Shown: positions 33,434-48,293 of the stretch, in pieces | Layout of the letters: every line of letters begins with the position of its first letter | How positions within the stretch are numbered: position 1 is the first letter of the stretch | NCBI RefSeq assembly: GCF_003752405.1 | Contig: NZ_RKHK01000001.1 | Span: 3,100,001 to 3,164,000 of the forward strand | Origin: Bogoriella caseilytica | GTDB taxonomy: Bacteria; Actinomycetota; Actinomycetes; Actinomycetales; Actinomycetaceae | Direction: 5' to 3' | DNA length: 64,000 nt | Position numbers and translations under genes: made by a program | The notes under the pieces: generated by a model | The model's input: only the letters and a program-made list of their open reading frames with translations | What the model was told of the DNA's origin: nothing | Database searches by the model: none

Positions 33434-34135
33434 GTGCCCGTGGACGGGGCGCTGGCCGCGCTCCCCGTCGAGGAGGCTGCGCCTGCGCGGCGGTTCTATG
33501 CGTGGCCGGGTAAGCGGAACTACGAGGGCTCCTACTGGTTCGCGACCACCGGTCGTCATGTGGCGCACGAGTCGCTGTTAGAGGCCGACTACCTCATGGC
33601 AGCCGACCATGGCCCGGCTGTCGTGGCGGTCTCCTCCCAGCCGTTGATCTTCCTGTGGCCTCGCCGCACCACGACGGGTGGCCGGTGGCATGTGCCGGAC
33701 TTCTTCGTCCGTCTCGCGGACGGCTCCGGGCGCCTCATCGACGTCCGTACCCCTGCACGTGTTGCTGGTGGCGAGGTGCAGTTCGCGTTCACCCGCCAGG
33801 CGTGCCAGTGGGCGTATGAGGTCTTCACCGGCATCCCCGAGCCTTTCCGGGCAAACCTGCGGTGGGTCTCCGGTTTCCGTCATCCGCGCCACTCCCCTTC
33901 CCCAGGGGTCGCGGCCGCACTGGTGGAGGCGTTCACGCCGGGGACGTCGATGGCTGCTGGTCTGCGCCGTGCCGCACGGCTCTTCGGCTCGCGTGCTGGT
34001 GGGGACGGGATGTCGGCGGTCAGCGGGAACCTCCTCCACATGCTCTACCGCCACCGGCTGCGTACCGACCTCAACGTCCCGTTGACCATGAGCACCCATG
34101 TGGAAGCAGAGCCCGCGATGGCGGTGGCGCTGTGA
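33434..34135 (+). CDS. tnsA: TnsA-like transposase endonuclease subunit
   Basis: 233 aa. N-terminal TnsA nuclease features: RFYAWPGKRNYEGSYWFATT, HESLLEADYLM (acidic residue), GRWHVPDFFVRLADGSGRLI followed by DVR. In Tn7 TnsA the last position is a catalytic Lys; Arg is present here, which I think also occurs in actinobacterial relatives. It would cut the 5' strands at transposon ends beside TnsB. GTG 33434; the stop overlaps the next start (GTGA). The reading frame is intact although its partner is broken. Confidence 0.82.
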   Translation: MPVDGALAALPVEEAAPARRFYAWPGKRNYEGSYWFATTGRHVAHESLLEADYLMAADHGPAVVAVSSQPLIFLWPRRTTTGGRWHVPDFFVRLADGSGRLIDVRTPARVAGGEVQFAFTRQACQWAYEVFTGIPEPFRANLRWVSGFRHPRHSPSPGVAAALVEAFTPGTSMAAGLRRAARLFGSRAGGDGMSAVSGNLLHMLYRHRLRTDLNVPLTMSTHVEAEPAMAVAL

Positions 34136-35394
34136 AGAGTGTCCGGTTGCTCGACTTCATCGAGTTCGACGGAGACTCCTGGCAGGTCACCGGCCAGGAC
34201 GGTGCCACAACCACCCTGAAATCGTTGACCACCGCGGGCGTACGTGAGGTGCCGCTCGCGACGCTGCTCGGGGACGGCTCCTTCGTCCCGGACTCCCCCG
34301 ACCGCCTCCCCAACCTCACAGACGCGCGCGTGCTCGACACCCTCCCGCAGGACGAGCGCGCCCGGGTGGAGTGGCTCCACCAGCACGTCCACGAGGTGCT
34401 GACCGGCAGCCCGCCATCCGCCGCCGATGGGGATGTCGTGATCCGCCCCGAGTACGGGCCCGGGTTGCGTCTTCAGGACCGAATGGCCGCCAAGCTCGCG
34501 TAACTCGACGCCACTGGCAAAGGCATGACCAACCGTCAGCTTTATCGTCATATCGCTGCCTACCGCGCGGAAGGTGTCGCCGGGCTGGTGGACAAGCGGC
34601 GCCTACGTACCTCTATTCCTGGGAGGCGGGCTGATCCCCTGGTTGTTCAGCTCCTCGAAGAAGAGGTCGCGGGTCAGACGAACCTCTCCACCGGTACCCG
34701 GCACCGGGCGATCACTCGCGTGATCATCGCTGCCCGGAAGCAGGGTGTACCGGTGCCCTCGCGGGCGACCCTGTACCGGATCCTCGCGGTGATTGAACGC
34801 GACCGGCGCCCGTTCGGGAAGGCCACCACCCGCCGCACCCAGGCAAACAGGCCGGATCGCACCTACGGGCGCCAGAGCCCGGCGCGTCCTGGGGAGTTGG
34901 TGGAGATCGACTCCACCCCGCTCGACGTCCTGGCCCTCTACCAGGACGGGTCCACCGGGCGTCCCGAGTTGACCGTCGCCCTTGATATCGCCACCCGCGT
35001 CCCACTCGCGGCGATCCTGCGCCCGAAAGCCGCCAAGGGAGTGGACGCAGCGATGCTCCTGGCTCGGGCGATGACGCCGCTGGCGATGCAGCCAGGCTGG
35101 GATGCCGAACTGTCCTACGCCGCCTCCCACCTACCCCCAGGCGCACTACCCCACGACGCGTACGCGCAGGCGGCGGCGAAACCTGTGATCGTCCCCGAGA
35201 CGGTGACGGTGGACAGGGGCAAGGTGTTCGTCGGTCAGGCGTTCATGCACGCCGCCGAACGCCTTGGGACCTCAGTGATCAAAGCCGCCTACAGGACCCC
35301 GACCGACAAGCCGCACATCGAACGGTTCTTCCACTTGGTCGACACCGGCTTCACCCAGTACCTCGACGGTTACACCGGTTCGAACGGTGTAACC
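34132..35394 (+). pseudogene. tnsB: TnsB-like DDE transposase, interrupted by a stop and 3'-truncated
   Basis: The frame runs from GTG 34132 through an in-frame TAA at 34501-34503 (after DRMAAKLA) and straight on as LDATGKGMTNRQLYRHIAAY, so one protein has been split by a nonsense change. The later part has the rve/DDE core: GELVEIDSTPLDVLALYQDG (first Asp), VIVPETVTVDRGKVFVGQAF (second Asp) and TPTDKPHIERFFHLV (Glu). Similarity ends at QYLDGYTGSN, where relatives continue with about 150-200 more residues. Exactly there lies a perfect palindrome. Transposition activity is presumably lost. No TnsC/TniB or TniQ partner follows. Confidence 0.85.
35368..35394. repeat. Perfect inverted repeat at the tnsB breakpoint
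   Basis: GGTTACACCG - GTTCGAA - CGGTGTAACC: a 10-bp perfect inverted repeat with a 7-nt loop. The left arm is tnsB coding sequence; the right arm marks the first bases unlike tnsB. It could be a hairpin-forming recombination target or junction. Confidence 0.8.
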
Positions 35395-35643
35395 GGAGCA
35401 GGTCCGTATCGCCCGCCTCCTGACCCGCCCCTCCTTCACCGGACCTCTGACCGACCCGAACGCGCCGACAGAGGGCCGCTACCAGAGAGTCGAGCACGCC
35501 CTGACCACGCTCATCCCCACCTGTCTCATCGTGAGGCGTGCCGGCGGGCCTGCTGTGGGACGTCCTGACCTACCTCGCCACCGTCCGCCGCAACGCCGCA
35601 ATCTCCGGAAAGGCGCCGGTCGATGGGCGCTGCAACCTCCTGC
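35395..35643 (+). other. Frameshifted remnant of unknown gene
   Basis: No intact frame. One frame reads VRIARLLTRPSFTGPLTDPN and continues TEGRYQRVEHALTTLIPT (to ~35525). A second frame reads PAGLLWDVLTYLATVRRNAA and ends at a TGA at ~35661. Together they look like two pieces of one former gene fused behind the broken tnsB. I do not recognise the family. Confidence 0.4.
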
Positions 35644-36937: not shown

Positions 36938-37162
36938 CCGAACCCCCTACCCCTCTCTCCTGCTCGTTCCCTGCCTGTACAGAGGACGGTAGAGGCGGCC
37001 ACCAACATCCGGGGTGTCTACACGCGCCCCGGTGCTGTCCCGTTCGGGACGGCGTGCCCTGGAAGATCGTGGCCCGGATCACGTATAGCCTCCTTGTGAT
37101 CGACCAACGCAAGGGCGCCACCTGGGGGCGTGGCCGAGACGGCATGGGAGGACGTTGCCGAG

Positions 37163-38023
37163 ATGAGCCATGCCCTGTCACTGGCGGCCGCCCTGGAGCG
37201 GTTGGACAAGGAAGCGCTGCGGCACCAGAAGCTCGCCCTGCGATTCCTGACAGCATCACTCGTGTGCGGGGCCCTGGCCGGGTTCGTTGCTCTGGCTGGT
37301 CAGCCGTGGCTCATCCTCGCCTGCCTCCTGGCGCTCGGAGCGATGGCCGGGAATCTGATCGCCACGCGGAAGAAGTGGCGCAGACGGTGGCACTCCACCC
37401 GCACCCTCCACGAACTGCTGCTCTCAGAACGGTGGCGCTTCGCCGCCCGCGTCACCCCCTACGAGGACGACGACGCCCCCGCAGGGTTCCAGGACAGGCT
37501 CGACACCCTCACCGCAGAGACCGGCCACACTGCTCGCATTGACGAGGAGACCCGCGCCCTGCGGCAGCAAGAACCGAACACTCTGCTGAAGACCTACCTG
37601 CGGGAGCGGATCGAGGACCAGAAGGACTACTTCACCAACCGGTCCCGCTTGTACTTCCGCCGCGCACGCTGGCTCCGGAGACTCGTCAGCCTCCTCTATG
37701 TCGTCGTCGGTGGCGTCGCTGTAGCCGAGGTGGCTGGTGTGTTCGATCAGCATGCGCTCGGGCCGACGGTCGCCGTGGTGACCTCGTTGCAGGTGTGGGC
37801 TGGGGCACGGGAATGGGGCCGCACCGCCCGGGTCTACTCGGGATACGCGCGTCAGCTCGAAGACCTCGCCACCGAAGCCCGCCAACTGGGCGACAACGCC
37901 GTGTCAGAGCTGCGCGGCATAGTGGCACGCACCGAGAACATCCTGGCTGACGAGACCACCCGGTGGCTCGCGCTGAACGACTTCGAACTATTCGACAAGC
38001 ACTACGGCACCCACACCGGGTGA
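37163..38023 (+). CDS. Double SLATT-domain (DUF4231-like) membrane effector
   Basis: About 286 aa. Two hydrophobic helix pairs: an N-terminal pair (FLTASLVCGALAGFVALAGQ, LILACLLALGAMAGNLIATR) and a second pair (LVSLLYVVVGGVAVAEVAGV plus LGPTVAVVTSLQVWA). The second follows YFRRARWLRRL and precedes the helical VYSGYARQLEDLATEARQLG. This is the arrangement of SMODS/SLOG-associated 2-TM effectors (SLATT_3 plus SLATT_1), thought to form pores in nucleotide-signalled conflict systems. Start ATG 37163 after GGGAGGA; an in-frame GTG at 37130 is possible. It lies 16 bases ahead of the TIR-methylase gene, so both are likely one transcript. Confidence 0.72.
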   Translation: MSHALSLAAALERLDKEALRHQKLALRFLTASLVCGALAGFVALAGQPWLILACLLALGAMAGNLIATRKKWRRRWHSTRTLHELLLSERWRFAARVTPYEDDDAPAGFQDRLDTLTAETGHTARIDEETRALRQQEPNTLLKTYLRERIEDQKDYFTNRSRLYFRRARWLRRLVSLLYVVVGGVAVAEVAGVFDQHALGPTVAVVTSLQVWAGAREWGRTARVYSGYARQLEDLATEARQLGDNAVSELRGIVARTENILADETTRWLALNDFELFDKHYGTHTG

Positions 38024-38039
38024 GGAAGGGCCCAACACC

Positions 38040-41000
38040 ATGGCTCAGGGACGAGGGGAACTAGACCCGATCAAGGTCTTCGTGTCCTACAAGAAGCACG
38101 ACGACCCCGAACGCAAGGACGGGGCCGGACGTGCCTTCCTGGACGACCTCGCCCACGAGATCGAACAGCGCGCCACCGACACCGGAGTACCCGTCGAACT
38201 CTGGTACGACCGGCAGCTCGCCGTGGGCGAGCGCTGGGACGACGAGATCAAGACCCGGCTCCGCGAGGCCGACCTCTACGTGGCGGTCTACTCACCCGGG
38301 TTCTTCGACAACAACGGTTACATCGCCCGTCACGAACTCCCCGTCATGGTCCGCGCCGCCCGCGACCGGCGCCCCGGTACCCCAGCGCGTGTCCTGACCA
38401 TCTCTCGCAAAGACGTCCGTCCCGAGGACATCCCTGACACCTACAGGGAGTTGTCCGACCTCCAGGCTGCTAACGAAGGCCGCCCCGTCGAAGCCGAAGA
38501 CCCCGACACGCAGGCGCGGATCGTCCAGGAGTTCGCCCGCAGCGTTCTCGCCTTAGCTCAGCGCCACTACGACGCCCGTCGCACCACCCAGGCTCGTCCC
38601 GTCATCGAGGACTATCGCCACCAGGTCACCTCACACCTACACGACATAGAGATGGACGAGCGGACCTCTCCCGAGGACCCGCTCAAAGCCCCCGTCAAGA
38701 CGCTCATCGAGAACGTCGCCGCTCTCCTGCCACGAGTGGAAGCGAACGTCTCCTTCGAAGCCCGGACCACCAGCGATGATGACGTCAGTGGTGTACGCCT
38801 TGACCTCTCGGTAAAGAACACCCGGGGACTGCTGATCGGGCACGTCGAGCTGAAGAGCCCCCGCAAGAGCGCCGACCCTACCGACCGCAAAGGCTGGAGC
38901 ACCCACGACCGACAGCAGTGGGAGCAGCTCGCAGGCCATCCGAACCTGATCTACAGCAACGGGCTCGAACTCGTACACCTCCAGCGTGGCTACAAGCGAG
39001 CCGAGGTTGCTCTCGATCCCGAGAAGTCCCTCTCCGATGCGCAGGCTGCTGAACTGGTCGAACTCATCGGCGCCTTCCTCCGAGAGACCCCCACAGCACC
39101 CCGCTCCCCACGCGCCCTGGCCGACCGACTCGCACCCCTGACTCGACTGCTACGCGACAAAGTCGTTGCACACCTCAAAACCGTGGACGAGAGCAACGGT
39201 CGCAGCCCTCTCGCCGGAAAGTACGCAGCCTGGCAGCAGACACTCATGCCATCCGCGACGGTCGAAGACTTCGCGGACGCCTTCGCCCAGTGCTACACCT
39301 ACGCACTCCTGATCGCCCGCTTCGAAAACGCACTCTCCCTCCCTCTCGATGAGCGTCAGCTTGGTTCCGCGCTGCGCGCCAAGGGCCACGAACTTCTCGG
39401 GGACGTCCTCTCAGTCATGGTCGGCCCCCAGACCAAAGAGGTACTCTCCGGACCCCTCGGCCTCATTGAAGCCCTCGTCGCCCACGTCGATCCCGAAGCG
39501 CTCACCAAGACCCGCAACGACGGACGCCACCAAGATCCCTGGCTGTACTTCTACGAAGACTTCCTCGCCGCCTACGACCCCGCACGCCGCGAAGAAGCAG
39601 GCGTCTACTACACCCCACTACCCGTGGTCGGCGCACAGGTCCGGCTCGTTGAACACGCGCTACGCACCCGCCACGGCGTGACGTTCTCCAGTGAGAACGT
39701 CACCGTCCTCGACCCCGCCCTCGGCACCGGTACGTACTTGCTCCAGACCGCTCAGCATGTCCTTGATGCCACTACCGGAGGCTCTAACGCCCCCACCGCG
39801 ACCTCTCTCGCCAGGCGCCTTCACGGCTTCGAACTCATGGTCGGCTCATACGCTGTCGCCCACCTCCGCCTCACCCAGGCGCTGACCTCCGCTGGAGCAG
39901 ACCTCGGTAACGAAGGCGTCAAGGTCTTCCTCACCGACACCCTGACGGCTCCCTTGCTGGGTGAGAAGAACCCCGGCCAACTCGCGCTGTTATCAGACGA
40001 GGCTCAGGCCATCTCTCATGAACAGCAGCGCTCCTCTGCCGTCAAGCGACATGACACCCCCATCCGCGTCATCATCGGCAACCCGCCCTACAGCCGAGGA
40101 AGTCGCGCGGAAGGAATCGGCGGTTTGACGGATGATGCTCGACCTAACATCGTCCTCCAAGCCCATAACACCGGCGAAGGAGACAAGGCGTCGCTGCTGG
40201 AGGACTTCACAAAAGACACCCCCGGCGGACAGGTCAAGAACCTGTACAACTCGTACGTCTACTTCTGGCGCTGGGCGATCTGGAAGGCGTGCGAGCAGAG
40301 AGATGCAGGCCCGGGCATCGTCTCCTTCATCACATCCTCCTCCTTCCTACGAGGTCCAGGATTCGCGGGGATGCGCAAGCACATGCGCGAAAGGTTCGAA
40401 GAGCTGTGGATCATCGACCTCGGCGGTGAAGGACGCGGCGCCCACAAGGAAGAAAACGTCTTCGCCATCCAGACCCCAGTCGCCATCGTCACCGGTATCC
40501 AGCGCCAAGGCAGGCGCACCGGCAAGAGAGCACCAGCAACCGTGCGCTACCACCGCATCGATGGCACCGCCTCCGAGAAGCTCGCGACCCTAGACACTCT
40601 TCACGCACTCGATGAAGACGACACCACCTGGCAGATCGCTAGCAAAGAGTGGACCGCAAGCTTCATCCCCGAAGGAGCGGGCGAGTTCTTCACGTGGCCG
40701 AGCCTCCTGGACATCTTTCCCTGGCAGCACTCAGGCGCCCAGTACAAGCGCAAATGGCCCATCGCAGCCAGCCCTGAGACGTTAAGTACGCGATGGGAAG
40801 AGTTGTATCGGGCAGGGAAGCCAGATGGCGGGCTCTTCCGAGAAACCGGTGATCGCAAAGTCTCCAAGCCTGGCGTCCAAGACGTAATCACAGGTGAGAA
40901 GCTGCCTGCGTTCGATAGCGACAAGGGCAGAACCTCGATGATGAAGCCGATCCGGTACGGCTACCGCTCCTTCGACCGCCAGTGGTGTTTCCCTGATGCC

Positions 41001-41936
41001 CGCATGGCTGATCGGATGCGGCCTGAGCTGTGGCAGAGCTACTCGAACCGACAACTCTACATCACCACCTTGACCTCTACACGCCTCGGCACCGGCCCCG
41101 TCGTCACCGTCTCAGCTCATGTCCCCGACCTCGACTTCTTCCGTGGCAGCTTTGGCGCGAAGAACGTGATACCCCTCTACCGCGATTTCGAAGCCACCAC
41201 CCCCAACATCACCTCTGGACTGCTCGACACCCTCACGGCAGAACTTGGCACCACCGTCACGGCAGAAGACCTCGCCGCCTACGCCTTCGCCCTCACCGGA
41301 ACAGGCGCCTTCTACGAACGATTCAAAGAAGACCTCACCGAATCTGGCGCCCGCCTCCCCTTAACGAAAGACACCGACCTCTTCACGCGAACAGCCTCCT
41401 TCGGGCGGGGCCTCCTCGCCCTAGCGACCTTCGGTGAACGCTTCCGCACACCCAACCGGTACGGCGCTGTTGAGCCCTGGACTATCCACGGCCAGGCCAC
41501 CCTAGCCGTCGCCACCCCGCCCAACCCCGAGGCGTACCCCGAACGGTTCTCATACGACGACTCTCGCCGCGTCCTGAAGGTTGGTGACGGCGAGTTCCAC
41601 AGCGTCGCACCCGAAGTGTGGAACTACCAGGTCTCGGGCATGCCCGTGGTCAAGTCGTGGCTTGGCTACCGGATGAAGAACCCCGCCGGAAAGTCCAGCT
41701 CCCCGCTGGACAAGATCCAGGCCGAGCGGTGGGAGTTCGACCTCGAACTCCTCGAACTTCTCCGCACCCTCGAACAGATGCTCGCCGCCGAGCAGGAGGC
41801 CGCTTCCCTCCTCGACCAGATCACAGCCAGCGACCTGTTCACCGTTGCGGAGCTGCCCGAACCAGCCGACTGGGAAAGGAAGCCCCGCAAGAAGACCTAT
41901 CGCCCCGTCGAGGCACAGGACAGGTTCGACCTGTGA
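38040..41936 (+). CDS. TIR - PD-(D/E)xK nuclease - N6-adenine methylase - specificity-domain fusion
   Basis: 1298 aa. Residues 11-110: TIR domain (IKVFVSYKKHDD; VELWYDRQLAVGERWDDEI; YVAVYSPGFF; putative catalytic Glu99 in YIARHEL). About 215-320: PD-(D/E)xK-like domain with Asp255 (VRLDLSV) and Glu270-x-Lys272 (HVELKSP). About 500-860: class I adenine methylase with YYTP (523-526), SAM motif DPALGTGT (558-565) and catalytic NPPY (681-684). About 860-1298: a specificity (target-recognition) region ending in a coiled coil (LLELLRTLEQMLAAEQEAAS). This resembles type IIG/type ISP restriction-modification enzymes but lacks a helicase and adds a TIR at the front. The TIR suggests NAD cleavage or nucleotide signalling triggered by DNA sensing (inference). 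Confidence 0.85.
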   Translation: MAQGRGELDPIKVFVSYKKHDDPERKDGAGRAFLDDLAHEIEQRATDTGVPVELWYDRQLAVGERWDDEIKTRLREADLYVAVYSPGFFDNNGYIARHELPVMVRAARDRRPGTPARVLTISRKDVRPEDIPDTYRELSDLQAANEGRPVEAEDPDTQARIVQEFARSVLALAQRHYDARRTTQARPVIEDYRHQVTSHLHDIEMDERTSPEDPLKAPVKTLIENVAALLPRVEANVSFEARTTSDDDVSGVRLDLSVKNTRGLLIGHVELKSPRKSADPTDRKGWSTHDRQQWEQLAGHPNLIYSNGLELVHLQRGYKRAEVALDPEKSLSDAQAAELVELIGAFLRETPTAPRSPRALADRLAPLTRLLRDKVVAHLKTVDESNGRSPLAGKYAAWQQTLMPSATVEDFADAFAQCYTYALLIARFENALSLPLDERQLGSALRAKGHELLGDVLSVMVGPQTKEVLSGPLGLIEALVAHVDPEALTKTRNDGRHQDPWLYFYEDFLAAYDPARREEAGVYYTPLPVVGAQVRLVEHALRTRHGVTFSSENVTVLDPALGTGTYLLQTAQHVLDATTGGSNAPTATSLARRLHGFELMVGSYAVAHLRLTQALTSAGADLGNEGVKVFLTDTLTAPLLGEKNPGQLALLSDEAQAISHEQQRSSAVKRHDTPIRVIIGNPPYSRGSRAEGIGGLTDDARPNIVLQAHNTGEGDKASLLEDFTKDTPGGQVKNLYNSYVYFWRWAIWKACEQRDAGPGIVSFITSSSFLRGPGFAGMRKHMRERFEELWIIDLGGEGRGAHKEENVFAIQTPVAIVTGIQRQGRRTGKRAPATVRYHRIDGTASEKLATLDTLHALDEDDTTWQIASKEWTASFIPEGAGEFFTWPSLLDIFPWQHSGAQYKRKWPIAASPETLSTRWEELYRAGKPDGGLFRETGDRKVSKPGVQDVITGEKLPAFDSDKGRTSMMKPIRYGYRSFDRQWCFPDARMADRMRPELWQSYSNRQLYITTLTSTRLGTGPVVTVSAHVPDLDFFRGSFGAKNVIPLYRDFEATTPNITSGLLDTLTAELGTTVTAEDLAAYAFALTGTGAFYERFKEDLTESGARLPLTKDTDLFTRTASFGRGLLALATFGERFRTPNRYGAVEPWTIHGQATLAVATPPNPEAYPERFSYDDSRRVLKVGDGEFHSVAPEVWNYQVSGMPVVKSWLGYRMKNPAGKSSSPLDKIQAERWEFDLELLELLRTLEQMLAAEQEAASLLDQITASDLFTVAELPEPADWERKPRKKTYRPVEAQDRFDL

Positions 41937-42361
41937 CCGCCCCCGATCACCTGACGGCCAAACGCGCCCGAGATTGGGTATCTGCCGGGGACACCTACGT
42001 CCCTACAGGCGAGGTCGTCCATGCTGAGCAACTCACGGAAGAGACCTCATGGGCCACCTCCTCCGGCGCCACTCTGCGAGGCGAGGCCGGAGACTGGCAG
42101 GTCAACGACAGCCACGGCGGGACGTGGACAGTCGATAAGGACGTCTTCAAAGCCACCTACGAACCCCTTGGAGACGGGAGGTTCCGTAAGACGGCGCCGG
42201 TGCGCGCCCGCCGCCTAGAGCACCCCGCACAACTGGAAACCCTCGAAGGGGTGGACACCTTGGGCGCGGGCGACTGGATTGTCATGAACGAGACCGGTGA
42301 GTGTTGGGGTATGCCTGACAACACCTTCCACACCCGGTACCGGAAGACGGATGATGACTGA
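41933..42361 (+). CDS. Tandem PGDYG-like small protein
   Basis: 142 aa. Two repeats of a small beta unit resembling the PGDYG domain: AGDWQVNDSHGGTWTVDKDV with FKATYEPL, and GAGDWIVMNETGECWGMPDN with FHTRYRK. Such units occur in proteins of unknown function next to enzymes. GTG 41933 overlaps the methylase stop (GTGA), so it is coupled to the TIR-methylase and probably works with it. Assignment rests on motif spacing. Confidence 0.62.
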   Translation: MTAPDHLTAKRARDWVSAGDTYVPTGEVVHAEQLTEETSWATSSGATLRGEAGDWQVNDSHGGTWTVDKDVFKATYEPLGDGRFRKTAPVRARRLEHPAQLETLEGVDTLGAGDWIVMNETGECWGMPDNTFHTRYRKTDDD

Positions 42362-43046
42362 CGACACCTGGCTCGGGTTCACAGAAGTGCAGTGGACAGG
42401 TCTCTACACCTTCTTCACCGGAGGGCTCTTACTTGTCGCAGTAGTCGCCGCCTTGGTCGCGTGGGCGCAAGTCAGTGCGATGCGCGAGCAGCGTGCGGAA
42501 GCGAGGCGTGCAGCCCAAGAGGCGTCGCGTCCCTACGTGATCGTGACTACGGAGCCCACACGGGTAGACCGGCATCTGTTTGATCTGGTGGTGAAGAACA
42601 TCGGACGGCGGCCAGCCCACGACGTGCGAGTGAAGCTTGATCCGAAGCCAGTGCGCGCGGACGAACGCGGCGGTGCGGTGATCGGAGACGTCAAGATGTT
42701 GAACGAGCCCATCGCCATGATCGCGCCAGGCCAGGAGCTACGAACATTCTTTGACAACTCGATAGAGCGTGAGGAAAGAAGGGGTGAGCTCCCTACGAGC
42801 CATCGCGTTCACGTGACGTACAGCGACAGCTCCAAGGAGGTCTACGACGAGGAGTCGGTCCTCGATCTCGATGCACTCAGAGACACGATGTTCGCCAAAG
42901 AGATGACCGTCCACCATCTCGCGAAGAAGCTGGAGAAGACGAACCAGCTTCTCGCTCGTTCTCCGGTCATCAACCCACGTAGCGCCCTGTCGGTAGACGC
43001 GACACTGTACGCGCCCCCGTTCGAGGACGACGAGGACCAGGAGTAG
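42351..43046 (+). CDS. Single-pass membrane protein of the island
   Basis: 231 aa. One N-terminal helix (LYTFFTGGLLLVAVVAALVA), then a coiled segment (MREQRAEARRAAQEASRPYV) and an Ig-like beta domain (VKNIGRRPAHDVRVKLDPKP; HVTYSDSSKEVYDEE). Proteins of this shape are common in actinobacterial accessory regions; the function is unknown. The start overlaps the preceding gene by 11 bases (ATG 42351 or 42354), implying a single transcript. Confidence 0.72.
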   Translation: MMTDDTWLGFTEVQWTGLYTFFTGGLLLVAVVAALVAWAQVSAMREQRAEARRAAQEASRPYVIVTTEPTRVDRHLFDLVVKNIGRRPAHDVRVKLDPKPVRADERGGAVIGDVKMLNEPIAMIAPGQELRTFFDNSIEREERRGELPTSHRVHVTYSDSSKEVYDEESVLDLDALRDTMFAKEMTVHHLAKKLEKTNQLLARSPVINPRSALSVDATLYAPPFEDDEDQE

Positions 43047-43051
43047 GCGTC

Positions 43052-44326
43052 TTGTTCACCCCGATCCACCGCGTTCTCGGTCAGGCACCAGGTCCGCTCG
43101 ACTCCGCCCTCATCGACAGGGCTATCGAGCAGCGGGTTGAGGAGGCCACGGACCTGGAGTTCAAGGCCGAGGTCTACCCAGCCCAGAACCAGGTGTGGCG
43201 GGCAGAGGCGGCAAAGGACATTGCCGCGATGGCCAACGCAGGTGGCGGCTGGTTCCTCTTCGGCATTACCGACGATGATGACGAAGCGGCTTCCGCTCCA
43301 GGAGTGTCATGGAGTGACGGGGAGGCTCAGCGGCTCCGGGACGTTGCCTACAACCTCATCGCGCCGCCCGTCGTAGGTGTCGAGTTCCACCCCATCCCCC
43401 GGGGCGGCGCTGATCCGGTGGTGGCGATGCGGATCCCGTCAACGTCGGAGCGTCCTCACTTCGCGCGGTCAAAGAAGGTTGAGGAAGGGCTCGTGGCGCC
43501 GCTGCGGAACGGGCCGCATACGGTCTTCATGTCCGAAGCGCAGATCGCGGACCAGTACCGGCAGCGCTTCCAGCGTGCTCGTGAGCGCCGCGAGGAACTG
43601 GAAGAGGCGTACCGGGCCACGGCTGACTGGTTGGACCGTGAGAACGGCGTCTGTCTGGTCTTCGAGGCAATCCCCCGCGAGTACCGCTCCGGACAACGTC
43701 TCGCTGAGATCGCTGCGTCTGCCGTCTACGCGAAACGCCCCCTTCGGCTCCTCCTTCGGGGTGACTACGCCACTCAGAGCGGGCATCCTGCTGAGGTCCA
43801 TCGAGGCCTGCGGGGATGGGTGCTGCGGTTACGAACGAACAACGTGATGCCGCCCTATCGGATAGGGCTGCACGACGACGGCGCCATGTCGTCCTGTCAT
43901 CGCCTCAGCGGCCTGGCCGACCACCAGGGTGATTCGGAGGTAGCCCCGCGCGGTGAGCGTGACCAGTGTCTATCCACCGATGTTGAGTACTACCTGGCAC
44001 AGAACATCGCCGTACTGCGCAACCTCGCAGAGCACCTGAACGTCACTGGCGGCTATAGCCTGCGTGTCGGGCTCGTAGGTCCTGACGGAGCGCCGATCAT
44101 GGTCCGAGACAGCATCCCCGGTTTCGCGAGCCTTGTGCCCGAGGACCAGCGTGAGTGGGTGAAGAACTTCCGCCCCCTCACGGTCGAGTTCGACCCGCTA
44201 GCCGCCGAGGGACAGCTTCTCGCTCAGACGCGAACGTTGGCGGCGGACCTCATCAACCAAAGCGGCGCCCAGCATTTGAAGGCACTCCTGCCACTTGACG
44301 AGTCCGACACGCCGGTGACGTCTTGA
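43052..44326 (+). CDS. AlbA_2 (Schlafen-like) nucleic-acid-binding protein
   Basis: 424 aa. N-terminal AlbA_2 domain: EATDLEFKAEVYPAQNQVWR, then AEAAKDIAAMANAGGGWFLF and GIT, the standard ExxxLEFK ... ANxxGG pattern. The rest is less clear (YRIGLHDDGAMSSCHRLSGL; LRVGLVGPDGAPIMV) with no helicase motif. AlbA_2 proteins include regulators and Schlafen-type RNA-cleaving immune factors. Start TTG 43052, five bases after the previous stop; its own stop overlaps the next gene. Confidence 0.8.
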   Translation: MFTPIHRVLGQAPGPLDSALIDRAIEQRVEEATDLEFKAEVYPAQNQVWRAEAAKDIAAMANAGGGWFLFGITDDDDEAASAPGVSWSDGEAQRLRDVAYNLIAPPVVGVEFHPIPRGGADPVVAMRIPSTSERPHFARSKKVEEGLVAPLRNGPHTVFMSEAQIADQYRQRFQRARERREELEEAYRATADWLDRENGVCLVFEAIPREYRSGQRLAEIAASAVYAKRPLRLLLRGDYATQSGHPAEVHRGLRGWVLRLRTNNVMPPYRIGLHDDGAMSSCHRLSGLADHQGDSEVAPRGERDQCLSTDVEYYLAQNIAVLRNLAEHLNVTGGYSLRVGLVGPDGAPIMVRDSIPGFASLVPEDQREWVKNFRPLTVEFDPLAAEGQLLAQTRTLAADLINQSGAQHLKALLPLDESDTPVTS

Positions 44327-45342
44327 CCGACGACGAGGAGCCGCCGGAGCACGAGGACGGCGACGAGTCTGGTTCGGAGTCGGACCACGAAGAGCAAGAA
44401 GAACGGGGCGAGCCGTTCTTCCGTTTCGGTTCCGGGTTCTCTCCGGGGTTCATGCAGGCACTCGGGCCCGGTATGGGGCGCCTCTGGGGCATCGACGCGT
44501 CTTGGTGGGCTGCTGCGGCGGAAGCGAGCAAGCCGTTTATCGAGATGCCTGCATTCATGCAGACGTTCGCGAGGACCGGTGCCCTGACGAGCCAGTGGGC
44601 CGCGACGGCACAGCGGATCACTGAGGAGCACACCCGGGTCTGGCGCGACCTGTACAAGTCCTTCGCGCCTGACACCGGACGGGTCTTCGCTGACCTCAAC
44701 CGTTACCTCCTGCCACCGAACTTGCGTGACCACGCCGATGAGGTCACGGTCACCCAGGTCTACCGCTTTCTCAGGGAAGAGGGCATCCCTCTCTACCTCG
44801 TCCCCAGTGGGCGCGTAGCGGTCCGGCTTCTTCGCGCCGAGGACCATAGAGCCAGGCGGAAGGTCCTGAACGACTGCTATGGGCAGATCATCGAGGACTG
44901 CGCGGACCTACTGGCGCGAGCTGATCATGAACAGGTGCGCGAGGAGGTGCTGTTCGTCCAGGACGGGCTCGGGGCGATGAAGGCCGGGCATACACGTTCT
45001 GCGCAAGCGATCTTCACAGTCACCCTCGACACCCTCATCGCCCGCTTCTACCCCGAGAAGGCGATCCGGACGGCGATCACCAGCCGGAAGAGAGGCGAGG
45101 AGGTACCGGAGGAGATCAACAGTATGGGGGTGCGTGAGGCCATGGTCTGGCTTCCGATCTGGAACGCCCACGAGCAGTTCTGGAGAGACAAGGGCGACTC
45201 CATCCCCTACCGGTACTCCCGCCACGCCAGCGTCCACGGCGTGTCCAAGAGACAGTTCAGCAAGAGGAACTGCGCCCAGGCGCTCATGCTCGTCACCAGC
45301 TTGACCGGCTACGCCGACGCCCTCTTCCGCAACGGAAGGTAG
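44323..45342 (+). CDS. HEPN-like protein with RxxxxH motif
   Basis: 339 aa. A Glu/Asp-rich N-terminus (DDEEPPEHEDGDESGSESDH) leads into a helical body. Near the end, IPYRYSRHASVHGVSKRQFS contains Arg300-His305 spaced as RxxxxH with a polar residue after Arg, followed by a helix (CAQALMLVTSLTGYADALF). This is the hallmark of HEPN-type ribonuclease domains, although the fold cannot be proved by eye. TTG 44323 overlaps the AlbA_2 gene's stop (TTGA). If real it would be an RNA-cleaving effector of the island. Confidence 0.55.
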   Translation: MTDDEEPPEHEDGDESGSESDHEEQEERGEPFFRFGSGFSPGFMQALGPGMGRLWGIDASWWAAAAEASKPFIEMPAFMQTFARTGALTSQWAATAQRITEEHTRVWRDLYKSFAPDTGRVFADLNRYLLPPNLRDHADEVTVTQVYRFLREEGIPLYLVPSGRVAVRLLRAEDHRARRKVLNDCYGQIIEDCADLLARADHEQVREEVLFVQDGLGAMKAGHTRSAQAIFTVTLDTLIARFYPEKAIRTAITSRKRGEEVPEEINSMGVREAMVWLPIWNAHEQFWRDKGDSIPYRYSRHASVHGVSKRQFSKRNCAQALMLVTSLTGYADALFRNGR

Positions 45343-45407
45343 ATGTCAGTGGCAACTGATGTCATCAGGTCACCGGGCCCAACGGCCTTCTTAGAAAGGA
45401 GCAGGCA

Positions 45408-46277
45408 GTGACCATCAGCATCTACGCCTACCGGAGCCTCATCTGGCTCGCCAGAAACCCGCGCAGCGGCAACCCACCGGAGACCGTGTGCCCGCCAGAG
45501 GACCAGAAGCTCGTCCTCCGCGAGATGGCTGAGCGCCGCTGGACCCTCCCCGTCGAGGAAGTCGAGACACTCGCGGGAACGGTGAGCTTCTTGCTCTTGG
45601 ACGAGGGGAAGGCACAGGCGCGGCGCGAAGATTCCGACTACCTCGTTCGTAGTGCTGCCTATGAGGTCCTTCAAGCTGTCCCCACACGGCGGGGAGCCGA
45701 CCTCTTGGAAGCGGCGGCAGCCTTCGAAGACGGCGCCACCGATCCCGTCACCGGCGAGCCTTTCGACAGTGAGATCGCTGACGACGCAGCACATCTACTC
45801 GATGAACACGGTCTCGTGGACGGGGTGCGGTCATCTAACGAAGCGGTGTTCCGCATGCAGTTGACCCCCAAGGGCAGGCAGTGGCGCCGGGCTCATTGGG
45901 TGCCAAGAATCGAGGAAGAGGCGGGGCAGGTGACCATGAACCAGCACAACGCGTTCAACATGAACGGCGGCACGCTCGGTGCCGCCGTGGTCGGCGGACA
46001 GGGCAACGTCGCCAACGTGCAGCAGGACCTCGACGGAGGATTCGCTCAGGCGCTTGAAGAGCTGCGAGAGCAGGTCCGGGAGAACGCGGAGACCGATCAG
46101 GATCGGGACGAGCTTCTCGGCCAGGTTGACCAGCTCGAAGAAGCCGCCCACACCGGAGACCCAGGTCGGATGGAACGGCTACGTAACTCGTTCCTCGAAG
46201 GCTTCGCCAACAAGGCCGGTACCGCAGCGGCGAGTAGCGTGCTCGGGCTACCGGTCCATCTGGTGGGAGCGGGCTGA
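45408..46277 (+). CDS. Island protein with probable winged helix and GNV-type motif
   Basis: 289 aa. The N-terminal half has wHTH-like spacing (DDAAHLLDEHGLVDGVRSSN with LTPKGRQW). It is followed by an Asn/Gly-rich segment (NQHNAFNMNGGTLGAAVVGG and GNVANVQQD) seen in many actinobacterial conflict proteins, and a helical tail (ALEELREQVRENAETDQDRD). GTG 45408 has a strong AAAGGAG site and a 65-bp gap upstream, so it may have its own promoter. A sensor or regulator for the island is possible but unproven. Confidence 0.6.
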   Translation: MTISIYAYRSLIWLARNPRSGNPPETVCPPEDQKLVLREMAERRWTLPVEEVETLAGTVSFLLLDEGKAQARREDSDYLVRSAAYEVLQAVPTRRGADLLEAAAAFEDGATDPVTGEPFDSEIADDAAHLLDEHGLVDGVRSSNEAVFRMQLTPKGRQWRRAHWVPRIEEEAGQVTMNQHNAFNMNGGTLGAAVVGGQGNVANVQQDLDGGFAQALEELREQVRENAETDQDRDELLGQVDQLEEAAHTGDPGRMERLRNSFLEGFANKAGTAAASSVLGLPVHLVGAG

Positions 46278-46344
46278 CACCGAAGCTTGGGACGCCCGGT
46301 TGGCGCGCCACCGGTAAGACCGTCATCAACGCGACCATACTCGG

Positions 46345-46755
46345 TCAGCACGGGGCGTCGATCCTGTTATCGGAATGCCAGATCTCCGCCCCGCACTCAT
46401 TGATGAGCAACCAATAGTTCCCCACCCCTGGGCGGGCCGGAGTATTAAGGTGGGCATTGGCGAACTCCGCCGCCTGGCTGGTGTCAAACGGCCAGTGCGT
46501 GCACCTAAACCATTGGCTATTCCAGCCCTCTAGTGAGCAGACTTCGATAGCTTCTCCACCACTATAGGACGAGAGCGCATAGAGGCGATCCGAATTATCG
46601 TTGAACCCTATTATTACATACCCGACATCCCGACCCCACTGTTGCGACGGCGCAACCCATGCATGTGAAATAGTTGCCCGGCGAGGTGGCGGCTTGGGAT
46701 TCTTCTCCTGTGCCGAACAACACGGCAGGGTCGAAGGTGGAAGGGACTGCTGCAC
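46345..46755 (-). CDS. Orphan hypothetical protein in low-GC patch
   Basis: Up to 136 aa. The convincing part is GYVIIGFNDNSDRLYALSSY, VCSLEGWNSQWFRCTHWPFD and VGNYWLLINECGAEIWHSD, a Trp/Tyr/Asn-rich beta-type protein resembling small immunity proteins in composition only. No good start or ribosome binding site is visible; GTG 46755 is the earliest, and the first 40 residues look non-native. It may be 5'-truncated. Confidence 0.5.
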   Translation of the reverse strand: MQQSLPPSTLPCCSAQEKNPKPPPRRATISHAWVAPSQQWGRDVGYVIIGFNDNSDRLYALSSYSGGEAIEVCSLEGWNSQWFRCTHWPFDTSQAAEFANAHLNTPARPGVGNYWLLINECGAEIWHSDNRIDAPC

Positions 46756-46908
46756 GGATAGGTGACAGGTTCTTGTCAGTAGGCAGGTCAGCGAATTGGA
46801 CTACTGACATTTCAGATGAGACCAGACAGACAAGTCCGTAGTGGCGCGCCACGACGTCCGGCTTCCGTCCCCGGCGTGACTCCCCCTCAGCGGACACCGC
46901 GTCAGTGT

Positions 46909-47505
46909 TCAGCGCCTACCGCGTTCGCTGATTCGATCCGACAGCGCACTTCCGACGAAGAATCCCATGGCGGCCGCGAGTCCGACGATGGTTACGGACG
47001 ACCTCCAGCCATCGCCGAGAAATCCGGGCTGAACGATCCACCATGCACCAACGGCAATCGCACCGATGATCGACCGAGTCATCGGTGAGAGACCGCGTGC
47101 GACCACGCCCAGAACGATCGAAACGACACACGCTATAGCCACTGTGAAGAGAGAAGCACCGAGAGCCGCGACCACATACAGGGGCCAGTCAGAGCTCAAG
47201 AAAACTGACCGGTCGTCACTGAGATTTACTCCCCATTCATCACTGGAGACTGCCCCGGTGAATATGGTCAATGCGGCTGCTGCCAGGAATCCAGACGTCA
47301 CTATGGGGAGAAGATTCATTCTCGCCACGACATCGACTCGCAAGGCGACGAGCACGCCGAGCGCTGCCAAGACGGGAAGCAGGACGGACCCAGGGAACAG
47401 GAGGCTATTCCCATAGATCAAGAAATTGACAGCAACGACCGCAGCTGCAGTGGCAGCCATCGACCCCACCATCACCAGAGTGCGAGCCGAGTCCCTCCCG
47501 GCCAA
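46909..47505 (-). CDS. Multi-pass membrane protein, hypothetical
   Basis: 198 aa, about six helices (MAATAAAVVAVNFLIYGNSL, LLPVLAALGVLVALRV, LYVVAALGASLFTVAIACVV, GAIAVGAWWIVQPGFLG). Start probably TTG 47505, 18 bases after the stop of the next small membrane gene, so they form a pair. Lower GC and less biased codons than the neighbours suggest recent transfer. Confidence 0.6.
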   Translation of the reverse strand: MAGRDSARTLVMVGSMAATAAAVVAVNFLIYGNSLLFPGSVLLPVLAALGVLVALRVDVVARMNLLPIVTSGFLAAAALTIFTGAVSSDEWGVNLSDDRSVFLSSDWPLYVVAALGASLFTVAIACVVSIVLGVVARGLSPMTRSIIGAIAVGAWWIVQPGFLGDGWRSSVTIVGLAAAMGFFVGSALSDRISERGRR

Positions 47506-47523
47506 TCGACTGCCAGCGGCTAC

Positions 47524-47778
47524 TCATCCATACGCCGCGATGGATACCACGACGATCGGTACGATCAGGACGGAGGCAAACGATGAGAGGAACAGGAAAG
47601 CGTTCAGCCCGCTCTCCGCCCCCACGAAAGCTTGCTCTTGTCCGATGAGCATCGCGAGATGCACGTACCCGTAGGCGAAGGTTGCTACAGAGACTGCCAC
47701 CGCCCCCACCTCGCGCCAGGAGCGATGTCGGCGTTCCACTGAAGACTGAGCCCCGGTTGCCCCAGATTGCGCACTCAA
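47524..47778 (-). CDS. Small two-helix membrane protein
   Basis: 84 aa from TTG 47778 with GGGGGAAC upstream. Helices VGAVAVSVATFAYGYVHLAM and LFLSSFASVLIVPIVVVSIA. First gene of a two-gene unit with the membrane protein downstream. No family known. Confidence 0.5.
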   Translation of the reverse strand: MSAQSGATGAQSSVERRHRSWREVGAVAVSVATFAYGYVHLAMLIGQEQAFVGAESGLNAFLFLSSFASVLIVPIVVVSIAAYG

Positions 47779-47951
47779 TTGTTCCCCCAGGTGATGCGTT
47801 CACGAAAGAGGTCCTTCACCCACGCTATCCAGGAGTGTGCGCTTTGTGTCAATAGTCATCAGGTACGAGGGGCTCATCGAACCTCGGCAGGATTGGAGGC
47901 CTGACGCGTGCAGATGACTCTGGAGCGAGCAAAAGGGTGATGTGCCGCCGG

Positions 47952-48293
47952 CTAGAAGAAGACGAAGGGCCGCACGACATGCGTCGCGAACCAGCCGGCC
48001 AGGGCCGCGAGAGTGACCCATGCCGTGCCGAGCATGGCCCACCGACGCCGTGTCCGGCCGAGTGTCAGCGTGGCGACCAATGCGGCCACGATGACCGCGG
48101 TCCACGCCGCCGCCACCGCAAGCCGCGCCTCACCGCCGCACCCCGCCGGGGGCGGGTAGATCGCGGCACACACATCACGGCGGGGAACCACCAGGTTCCA
48201 GATCTGCCACAGCCCGATCACAGCAAGGGCCACCGGCACACCCCAGAGTGCTGGGTGAACTCCCCTGTTCGTGGGCGACCGACGCTGGACCAT
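47952..48293 (-). CDS. Three-helix membrane protein, hypothetical
   Basis: About 113 aa from ATG 48293 (MVQRRSPTNRG). Helices near ALWGVPVALAVIGLWQIWNL, VAAAWTAVIVAALVATLTLG and AMLGTAWVTLAALAGWFATH. Two cysteines (RRDVCAAIYPPPAGCGGE) lie in the external loop and may form a disulfide. Core-like GC marks the right limit of the low-GC patch. Function unknown. Confidence 0.65.
   Translation of the reverse strand: MVQRRSPTNRGVHPALWGVPVALAVIGLWQIWNLVVPRRDVCAAIYPPPAGCGGEARLAVAAAWTAVIVAALVATLTLGRTRRRWAMLGTAWVTLAALAGWFATHVVRPFVFF

What the first reader, a model, noticed from the sequence alone, without database searches (positions are those of the whole stretch)
38040..38900. TIR domain in the position normally occupied by the start of an R-M polypeptide
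The N-terminal 110 residues show TIR-2 features (FVSYKKHDD, LWYDRQL, YSPGFF, IARHEL) on a protein otherwise organised like a restriction-modification enzyme. No helicase motif lies between nuclease and methylase. It may be a cut-or-signal enzyme instead of a plain restriction enzyme.
Basis: partly seen in the sequence, partly recalled or inferred. Interest (0 to 1): 0.7.

Follow-up and report, generated by a model that had tools for sequence, protein, structure and literature searches.

The report
TIR domain fused to restriction enzyme
A bacterial DNA-cutting and DNA-marking enzyme carries a TIR immune-signalling domain at its front and sits beside the kind of membrane protein that TIR proteins are often paired with, so it may link recognition of foreign DNA to a cell-suicide alarm.

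Summary
One 1,298-residue frame (38040-41936) encodes a TIR domain (~12-180), a PD-(D/E)xK nuclease, an N6-adenine methylase and a Type ISP-like specificity domain, with no helicase found. The core is a widespread Type IIG/DrdV-like family (PDLC03631, E 3.9e-294). The TIR is a rare add-on: of 105 other loci examined only Nocardioides sp. Soil774 (43-46% identical) has it.

Its relatives adjoin TIR genes in 4 of 4 own-family genomes; relatives of one of those do so in 7 of 8 plasmid loci inspected. In three genomes of one genus a different Type IIG enzyme, a ThsB-type TIR and a double SLATT follow each other. A PGDYG gene overlaps the enzyme's stop in both TIR-bearing loci; none of 106 TIR-less loci shows one.

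Best reading: a TIR-armed Type IIG enzyme whose assembly on unmethylated DNA also triggers NAD+ cleavage or signalling, with SLATT as membrane effector. Activity untested. New variant of known kinds.

The parts
37130..38023 (+). Double-SLATT protein (SLATT_3/DUF4231-like half plus SLATT_1 half), 297 aa, predicted two-TM membrane effector; ends 16 bp before the TIR-R-M gene
   Evidence: Pfam SLATT_1 E 2.8e-16, DUF4231 2.5e-15, SLATT_3 4.7e-11; NCBIfam SLATT_1 1.7e-26; only SLATT_1 match found in the genome at E 0.001; start codon not certain
38040..41936 (+). TIR-nuclease-methylase-TRD polypeptide, 1298 aa
38073..38579 (+). TIR domain, residues 12-180; E99 at 38334-38336 in the position of the catalytic glutamate
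   Evidence: end of domain judged from the alignment with L013 and the start of the conserved core
38652..39029 (+). PD-(D/E)xK nuclease, residues 205-330 (E240, D255, E270-x-K272, Q293)
   Evidence: conserved in 94, 97, 96, 96 and 99 of 99 rows; DrdV and BpuSI matches of the model
39036..39539 (+). helical connector, residues 333-500, where Type ISP enzymes have their helicase
   Evidence: model secondary structure; DrdV alignment 185-491
39546..40694 (+). N6-adenine methylase, residues 503-885; motif I DPALGTG at 558, NPPY at 681
   Evidence: LlaBIII, DrdV, LlaGI chains at E 6.5e-25, 9.4e-25, 8.3e-22
40710..41741 (+). Type_ISP_C specificity domain, residues 891-1234
   Evidence: Pfam PF18135 E 1.9e-66
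41933..42361 (+). PGDYG protein, 142 aa, GTG start overlapping the stop of the R-M gene; beta-rich repeats
   Evidence: Pfam PF14083 E 1.2e-7, above cut-off; counterpart in the same overlapping place in L013 11977-12405, 41% identical; model pLDDT 86

Best explanation
This is a Type IIG (DrdV-like, helicase-less, ISP-TRD) restriction-modification enzyme that has been armed with a TIR domain, working with a SLATT membrane protein as a two-layer anti-phage system. Shown by sequence: an intact-looking methylase, nuclease and TIR in one chain; a double-SLATT gene immediately upstream; a PGDYG gene overlapping the stop. Inferred: the methylase marks host sites. On foreign DNA with several unmodified sites the enzyme gathers into a multimer, as DrdV does, bringing nuclease domains together to cut. 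The same gathering brings the N-terminal TIR domains together, and TIRs are generally switched on by clustering (recalled knowledge). Active TIR cleaves NAD+ and makes an ADP-ribose-type product, which opens the SLATT membrane protein or simply drains NAD+, stopping the infected cell if cutting fails. The PGDYG protein is most likely a regulator or ligand-binding partner of this TIR branch.
For: TIR passes the Pfam cut-off and keeps E99 in the window and in L013. Nuclease residues conserved, methylase motifs present. The core resembles DrdV by sequence and by model (Foldseek E 1.2e-6; VIA Z 14.4, 242 residues, rmsd 13.8). DrdV is a monomer that forms a tetramer on several sites before cutting (passages of PMC10201449). 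The genome has one SLATT_1 match and two TIR_2 matches, and the SLATT lies 16 bp before one of these TIRs. SLATT relatives adjoin TIR genes in 4 of 4 family genomes. Plasmid relatives of the L130 SLATT do so in 7 of 8 inspected loci, out of 80 matching records of which 20 were listed. In G034, G007 and G045 a different Type IIG enzyme (PDLC03611), a ThsB TIR and a double SLATT follow each other on one strand. Literature passages: SLATT predicted as an ADP-ribose-derivative-regulated membrane effector, with TIR-SLATT neighbourhoods in phages (PMC9503650; PMC7159879); a TIR plus transmembrane genes of phage AC1 gave tested anti-phage defence (PMC9122126).
Against: No activity was measured. L013, the only other TIR-bearing relative found, has no SLATT_1 match in its genome, so SLATT is not obligatory. 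The window SLATT is only 24% identical to the L130 SLATT and itself found no plasmid match at E 0.001, so the plasmid neighbourhoods speak for the wider family only. The TIR here is a TIR_2 type, not the ThsB type of the L130/L132 pairs; BLASTP of the two gave only a 46-residue stretch, E 0.023. Against solved TIR sequences the two-row profile reaches only E 0.14. The structural model of the TIR is poor at 90-151, which includes E99; its best structural matches are ProRS anticodon-binding domains (Z about 9), with a TIR only at Foldseek rank 43, E 1.6. One operon is inferred; the scan found no sigma-70-like promoter and about as many terminator-like sites as in shuffles. The fusion is rare.
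Confidence: 0.5

Rival explanations
1. The TIR is a direct NAD+-depleting toxin gated by the R-M part, without a messenger; SLATT and PGDYG are independent neighbours or auxiliaries.
For: L013 has TIR-R-M plus PGDYG but no SLATT_1 match in its genome. TIR domains that simply deplete NAD+ are known (cited for CBASS and Pycsar in a passage of PMC9122126).
Against: Close spacing to the single SLATT_1 match of the genome, and the TIR-SLATT habit of its relatives.
Confidence: 0.25
2. The TIR is a structural or protein-protein module (scaffold), without NADase activity, that helps the R-M enzyme multimerise or bind a partner such as PGDYG.
For: PGDYG co-occurs with the TIR in 2 of 2 TIR-bearing loci and was found in 0 of 106 TIR-less ones. 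Weak resemblance to solved TIRs (best E 0.14) and poor modelling of the active-site half.
Against: E99 and the surrounding motif are kept across 37%-identical TIRs.
Confidence: 0.13
3. A plain Type IIG restriction-modification enzyme; the TIR is a chance fusion with little effect.
For: Close relatives without TIR exist, and the TIR-bearing pair is not recovered as one clade.
Against: The fusion is kept in two deeply diverged enzymes (43-46% identity), both with the PGDYG gene.
Confidence: 0.12

Closest known systems
Type IIG restriction-modification enzymes, PADLOC family PDLC03631; DrdV as structural model
   Same: Nuclease, helical connector, methylase and TRD in one chain; E 3.9e-294 over residues 205-1292; DrdV by Foldseek and VIA
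   Different: Extra N-terminal TIR; TRD is the Type_ISP_C family; SLATT and PGDYG neighbours
Type ISP enzymes LlaBIII and LlaGI
   Same: Methylase similarity (E 6.5e-25 and 8.3e-22) and Type_ISP_C domain; plasmid records name most of the best relatives 'type ISP restriction/modification enzyme'
   Different: The ATP-dependent helicase that defines Type ISP is missing
TIR-SLATT two-gene modules of phages and plasmids
   Same: A TIR next to a SLATT/DUF4231 protein (PMC9503650 passage; plasmid loci)
   Different: There the TIR is a separate protein; here it is fused to an R-M enzyme
Thoeris
   Same: TIR protein plus effector gene; the TIR makes an NAD-derived messenger (cited in a passage of PMC9122126)
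   Different: No SIR2, SLOG or Macro effector among the six scanned neighbours; ThsB profile only at E 0.01
Type IIG + ThsB-TIR + SLATT gene run in G034, G007, G045 (L130, L131, L132)
   Same: Same three functions together, in the same bacterial family as the window
   Different: Three separate genes; another Type IIG family (PDLC03611); order R-M, TIR, SLATT instead of SLATT, TIR-R-M
TIR fused to Orc/CDC6 ATPase in neighbourhoods of DndH-related systems
   Same: TIR joined to a DNA-handling protein of a proposed defence system (PMC10853773 passage)
   Different: Not a restriction-methylase polypeptide

Membership tests
TIR domain (Pfam TIR_2, PF13676) | Profile score above the curated cut-off | tested here: met
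   30.0 bits against 28 in the window protein; 28.8 in L013
TIR domain (Pfam TIR_2, PF13676) | Glutamate of the active site, in the [W/Y]-x-x-x-E-[L/F/M] context | tested here: met
   E99 in YIARHEL, YISKNEL in L013; same column as a glutamate of five other TIRs under 2 of 3 MAFFT settings and by HMM. That this is the NADase glutamate is recalled
TIR domain (Pfam TIR_2, PF13676) | TIR fold | tested here: inconclusive
   Poor pLDDT at 90-151; ProRS anticodon domains rank above TIRs
TIR NADase | NAD+ cleavage | not testable with these tools
   needs protein
Type IIG restriction-modification enzyme | Nuclease and methylase plus TRD in one chain, no ATPase/helicase | tested here: met
Type IIG restriction-modification enzyme | Intact PD-(D/E)xK residues and methylase motifs | tested here: met
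Type IIG restriction-modification enzyme | Cuts at a fixed distance from its site | not testable with these tools
   needs protein
Type ISP restriction-modification enzyme | Superfamily 2 helicase between nuclease and methylase | tested here: not met
   no helicase family; LlaBIII aligns only from its residue 847
Thoeris | ThsA-type (SIR2-SLOG or Macro) effector gene beside the TIR gene | tested here: not met
   six genes around the enzyme scanned with Pfam, none found; the rest of the genome was not searched for it
TIR-SLATT module | SLATT gene directly beside a TIR gene | tested here: met
   16 bp apart
TIR-SLATT module | Stand-alone TIR protein | tested here: not met
   TIR_2 type, fused to the R-M enzyme

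The most novel reading that the evidence does not exclude
A restriction-modification enzyme that is also a DNA-methylation-gated messenger synthase: binding several unmethylated sites clusters the TIRs and makes an ADP-ribose-type signal that opens a SLATT pore, with PGDYG as a ligand-binding regulator of that signal (in Rhodococcus a PGDYG module is fused to a protein with apparent membrane segments and a weak RyR match near a TIR gene, and PGDYG has relatives in phage protein families). Self/non-self recognition by DNA methylation would feed directly into TIR immunity.
Probability: 0.3. Interest if true: 0.85.

Novelty: new variant of a known kind. Interest (0 to 1): 0.62.

Why it matters
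Restriction enzymes are classically thought to protect the cell by cutting alone, and TIR proteins by signalling after some other sensor. A single chain that joins both, with a separate-gene counterpart in the same bacterial family, would give a defined molecular input (unmethylated target sites, which can be written on a plasmid) for TIR activation and for SLATT proteins, whose pore function is described as a prediction in the passages read here. It makes 'what turns a TIR on' directly testable with methylated against unmethylated DNA.

Tried and rejected
Replacement of the R-M N-terminus by TIR: rejected, the nuclease is complete. TIR as a frameshift or neighbouring-gene artefact: rejected, one open frame, and the same fusion in L013. 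A member of Type ISP: rejected, no helicase. TIR or SLATT supplied in trans near TIR-less relatives: HMMs for SLATT, TIR, ThsB and PGDYG gave 0 hits in 106 TIR-less loci, 66 of them with at least 9 kb held. The other 40 are shorter (most genome-search loci have 1.5 kb flanks), a few loci are cut at the N-terminus (L020, L050, L106), and L017 and L087 are the same locus. The HMMs fire on controls, many of which are their own seeds; non-seed controls that fired are L129 (SLATT), L120, L135 and two further L129 frames (TIR), and L131 and L137 (ThsB).

Searches that found nothing or little: TIR-nuclease query P0002 and TIR profile A1 in viral contigs; SLATT in plasmids with the window protein; PGDYG in viral contigs, one weak locus; whole-protein query in phages, two methylase-only records. 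PF14083 in 198 genomes of the order rang nowhere, not even in the window's own genome where the gene is, so that call says nothing. The TIR profile in 246 genomes of the class gave the window and three weak matches, not followed up. The PGDYG model has no PDB match with E below 0.001. A RyR relation between L013 12384-14195 and the Rhodococcus protein gave only an 18-residue stretch, E 0.016. Rothia plasmid hit H92 for the ThsB TIR shows no annotated SLATT or R-M neighbour.

Tree: the two TIR-bearing cores fall in one actinobacterial clade with TIR-less relatives nested. Holding the two together is weakly rejected (p-AU 0.026), so TIR plus PGDYG may have been ancestral and lost, or gained twice.

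Literature: searched an open-access library only; bioRxiv and most subscription papers are not held, and the 2015 NAR paper on nucleotide-centric systems was not held. I opened passages of six papers. Other listed papers were seen as listings only, among them the three that hold 'type IIG', 'TIR' and 'abortive infection'. No fusion of this kind in print is therefore a weak statement.

Full report
Observation. The frame 38040-41936 (+) encodes 1298 residues. Pfam finds TIR_2 (13-124, E 7.9e-7, above its cut-off), N6_Mtase, Eco57I and Type_ISP_C, and no helicase. PADLOC's Type IIG model PDLC03631 covers residues 205-1292 at E 3.9e-294, so the TIR lies in front of a complete R-M enzyme. Of 107 loci tabulated, I aligned the 99 whose protein is longer than 950 residues (L107, a repeat of L013, left out): the nuclease residues E240, D255, E270, K272 and Q293 are kept in 94, 97, 96, 96 and 99 of 99 rows. 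Methylase motifs DPALGTG and NPPY are present.

What the core is. By sequence the methylase part matches solved chains of LlaBIII, DrdV (7lo5, named) and LlaGI. A model of residues 1-500 matches DrdV over nuclease and connector (Foldseek E 1.2e-6; VIA Z 14.4, 242 aligned, rmsd 13.8) and BpuSI over the nuclease (Z 9.5, 140 aligned, rmsd 3.7). The large rmsd to DrdV means the domains fit singly rather than as one rigid body (my reading). It is therefore a helicase-less Type IIG enzyme with an ISP-type specificity domain. Relatives occur in many phyla by their record titles: the genome-contig scan reported 307 relatives and returned the best 80.

How rare the TIR is. Of the 107 loci, L001 is the window and L107 repeats L013; of the other 105, only L013 (Nocardioides sp. 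Soil774) has a match reaching into the TIR. Some of the 105 are fragments. Whole-genome searches found the enzyme in 4 of 213 family genomes (E 1e-100), 10 of 396 phylum genomes and 15 of 396 order genomes (E 1e-60), the window's own genome counted each time, and no other match reaches into the TIR. The TIR-nuclease part was found in 1 of 294 genomes of the L013 family, its own. The TIRs of the window and L013 are 37% identical, the whole proteins 43-46%. In trees the two fall in one well-supported actinobacterial clade with TIR-less enzymes nested; one clade of the two is weakly rejected (p-AU 0.026).

The TIR itself. Two-row profile against five other TIR domains: hhalign probability 97.4%, E 1.1e-11, residues 12-92; two of the five were themselves found by similarity to this TIR. 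Against solved structures the best hit of the two-row profile is a bacterial TIR at E 0.14, weak. E99 (YIARHEL; YISKNEL in L013) lines up with a glutamate of all five other TIRs under 2 of 3 MAFFT settings and by HMM; its catalytic role is recalled. The AlphaFold model has low confidence at 90-151, and structural searches rank ProRS anticodon-binding domains above TIRs. So the TIR assignment rests on sequence profiles; the fold test was inconclusive.

Surroundings: SLATT. The gene at 37130-38023, ending 16 bp before the TIR-R-M start, is a double-SLATT protein. It is the only SLATT_1 match found in the 3.24 Mb genome, which has two TIR_2 matches. If the SLATT gene lay at random among roughly 3,000 genes (my estimate), adjacency to a TIR gene would have a chance near 0.1%. 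The window SLATT found four relatives besides itself in 213 family genomes. In G034, G007 and G045 the SLATT overlaps a ThsB-type TIR gene (Pfam in L130 and L132; tblastn 66% and HMM in L131). In G201 it lies between two TIR-bearing frames. The window SLATT had no plasmid match. The L130 SLATT, its 24% identical relative, matched 80 plasmid records, 20 of them listed. I inspected 8 of these, leaving out near-copies. In 7 of 8 a TIR gene is the direct neighbour. In the eighth (L137) an annotated TIR gene lies beyond two genes on one side and an unannotated ThsB-like frame beyond two IS elements on the other.

A separate-gene counterpart. In G034, G007 and G045 (one genus of the window's family) the gene before the TIR is a Type IIG enzyme of another family (PDLC03611, E 0 in L130 and L131). 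In L132 the match is spread over two frames. TIR and SLATT proteins of L131 and L132 are 60-67% identical to those of L130 and the stretches align as DNA, so this is one lineage, not three independent cases. It nevertheless repeats the combination Type IIG, TIR and SLATT with different parts.

Surroundings: PGDYG. The 142-aa gene at 41933-42361 overlaps the R-M stop and has a 41% identical counterpart at the same place in L013; Pfam calls both PGDYG. The PGDYG HMM found none in 106 TIR-less loci, 66 of them with at least 9 kb held. Elsewhere it is the C-terminal module of an 816-residue protein with apparent membrane segments and sub-threshold RyR and PGDYG matches (E 0.005 and 0.0025), near a TIR protein in Rhodococcus, and lies near a large WD40 protein with a TIR match in Paraburkholderia. 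A third plasmid case, in Priestia, has no TIR that I recognised by eye among its listed frames. It also matches phage families of unknown function (phrog_419 E 1.5e-10). Its model is confident, though made from two sequences, and has no solved counterpart. No paper in the library holds the word PGDYG.

Mechanism. Read passages state that DrdV is a monomer that assembles as a tetramer on several bound sites to cut, and that slow methylation competes with rapid cutting (PMC10201449). TIR activation by clustering is recalled knowledge. Together they suggest that multi-site binding on unmodified DNA assembles nuclease and TIR at once. SLATT has been predicted as an ADP-ribose-derivative-regulated membrane effector, with TIR-SLATT neighbourhoods in phages (PMC9503650, passage; PMC7159879, passage). 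A TIR plus transmembrane genes from phage AC1 protected E. coli in tests (PMC9122126, passages). Every step from clustering onward is inference here.

Against it. No SLATT_1 in the L013 genome; the TIR is not of the ThsB type seen beside the SLATTs of L130-L132; the fold test failed to single out TIR; a start at M205 is possible. I put the full model at 0.5, and the direct NAD+-depletion variant at 0.25.

Novelty. The parts are known and the TIR-SLATT pairing is known as a prediction. I found no TIR fused to a Type IIG or ISP enzyme in print in searches of an open-access library, but most papers listed there were not opened. I file it as a new variant of known kinds.

Noticed in passing
window 33434-35568: TnsA-like heteromeric transposase subunit (NF033179, E 1.2e-57) followed by a transposase frame with only partial or sub-threshold integrase/IS481 matches; possibly a decayed mobile element at the island's edge.
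   Followed up: partly
window 38000-48000: GC is 0.60-0.65 against 0.67-0.74 elsewhere in the window, as expected of an acquired island.
   Followed up: no
window 42354-46277: Four further genes on the same strand: a protein matching phrog_9607 (E 6.9e-23), a Schlafen AlbA_2 protein (E 6.1e-12) and two proteins without a significant family match. Whether they belong to the system is unknown; tblastn found none of them in the L013 locus.
   Followed up: partly
L119 5922-8372 (Rhodococcus qingshengii plasmid): 816-aa protein with a sub-threshold RyR match and a C-terminal PGDYG pair, near TIR, WD40 and DUF4062-STAND genes: a possible nucleotide-signal channel.
   Followed up: partly
L130, L131, L132: Type IIG (PDLC03611), ThsB-TIR and double-SLATT genes in a row in three genomes of the window's family; a candidate defence operon in its own right.
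   Followed up: partly
L137 8119-8448 (Agrobacterium sp. MA01 plasmid): Unannotated ThsB-like TIR frame separated from the SLATT gene by IS5 and IS630 elements.
   Followed up: no
L129 (G201): A cluster with several TIR-bearing frames (TIR-NB-ARC-TPR, TIR-WD40 and others) around one double-SLATT gene.
   Followed up: no
L013 12384-14195 (-): 603-aa protein with apparent membrane segments, converging on the PGDYG gene; its C-terminal end looks RyR-like by eye but Pfam finds nothing.
   Followed up: partly
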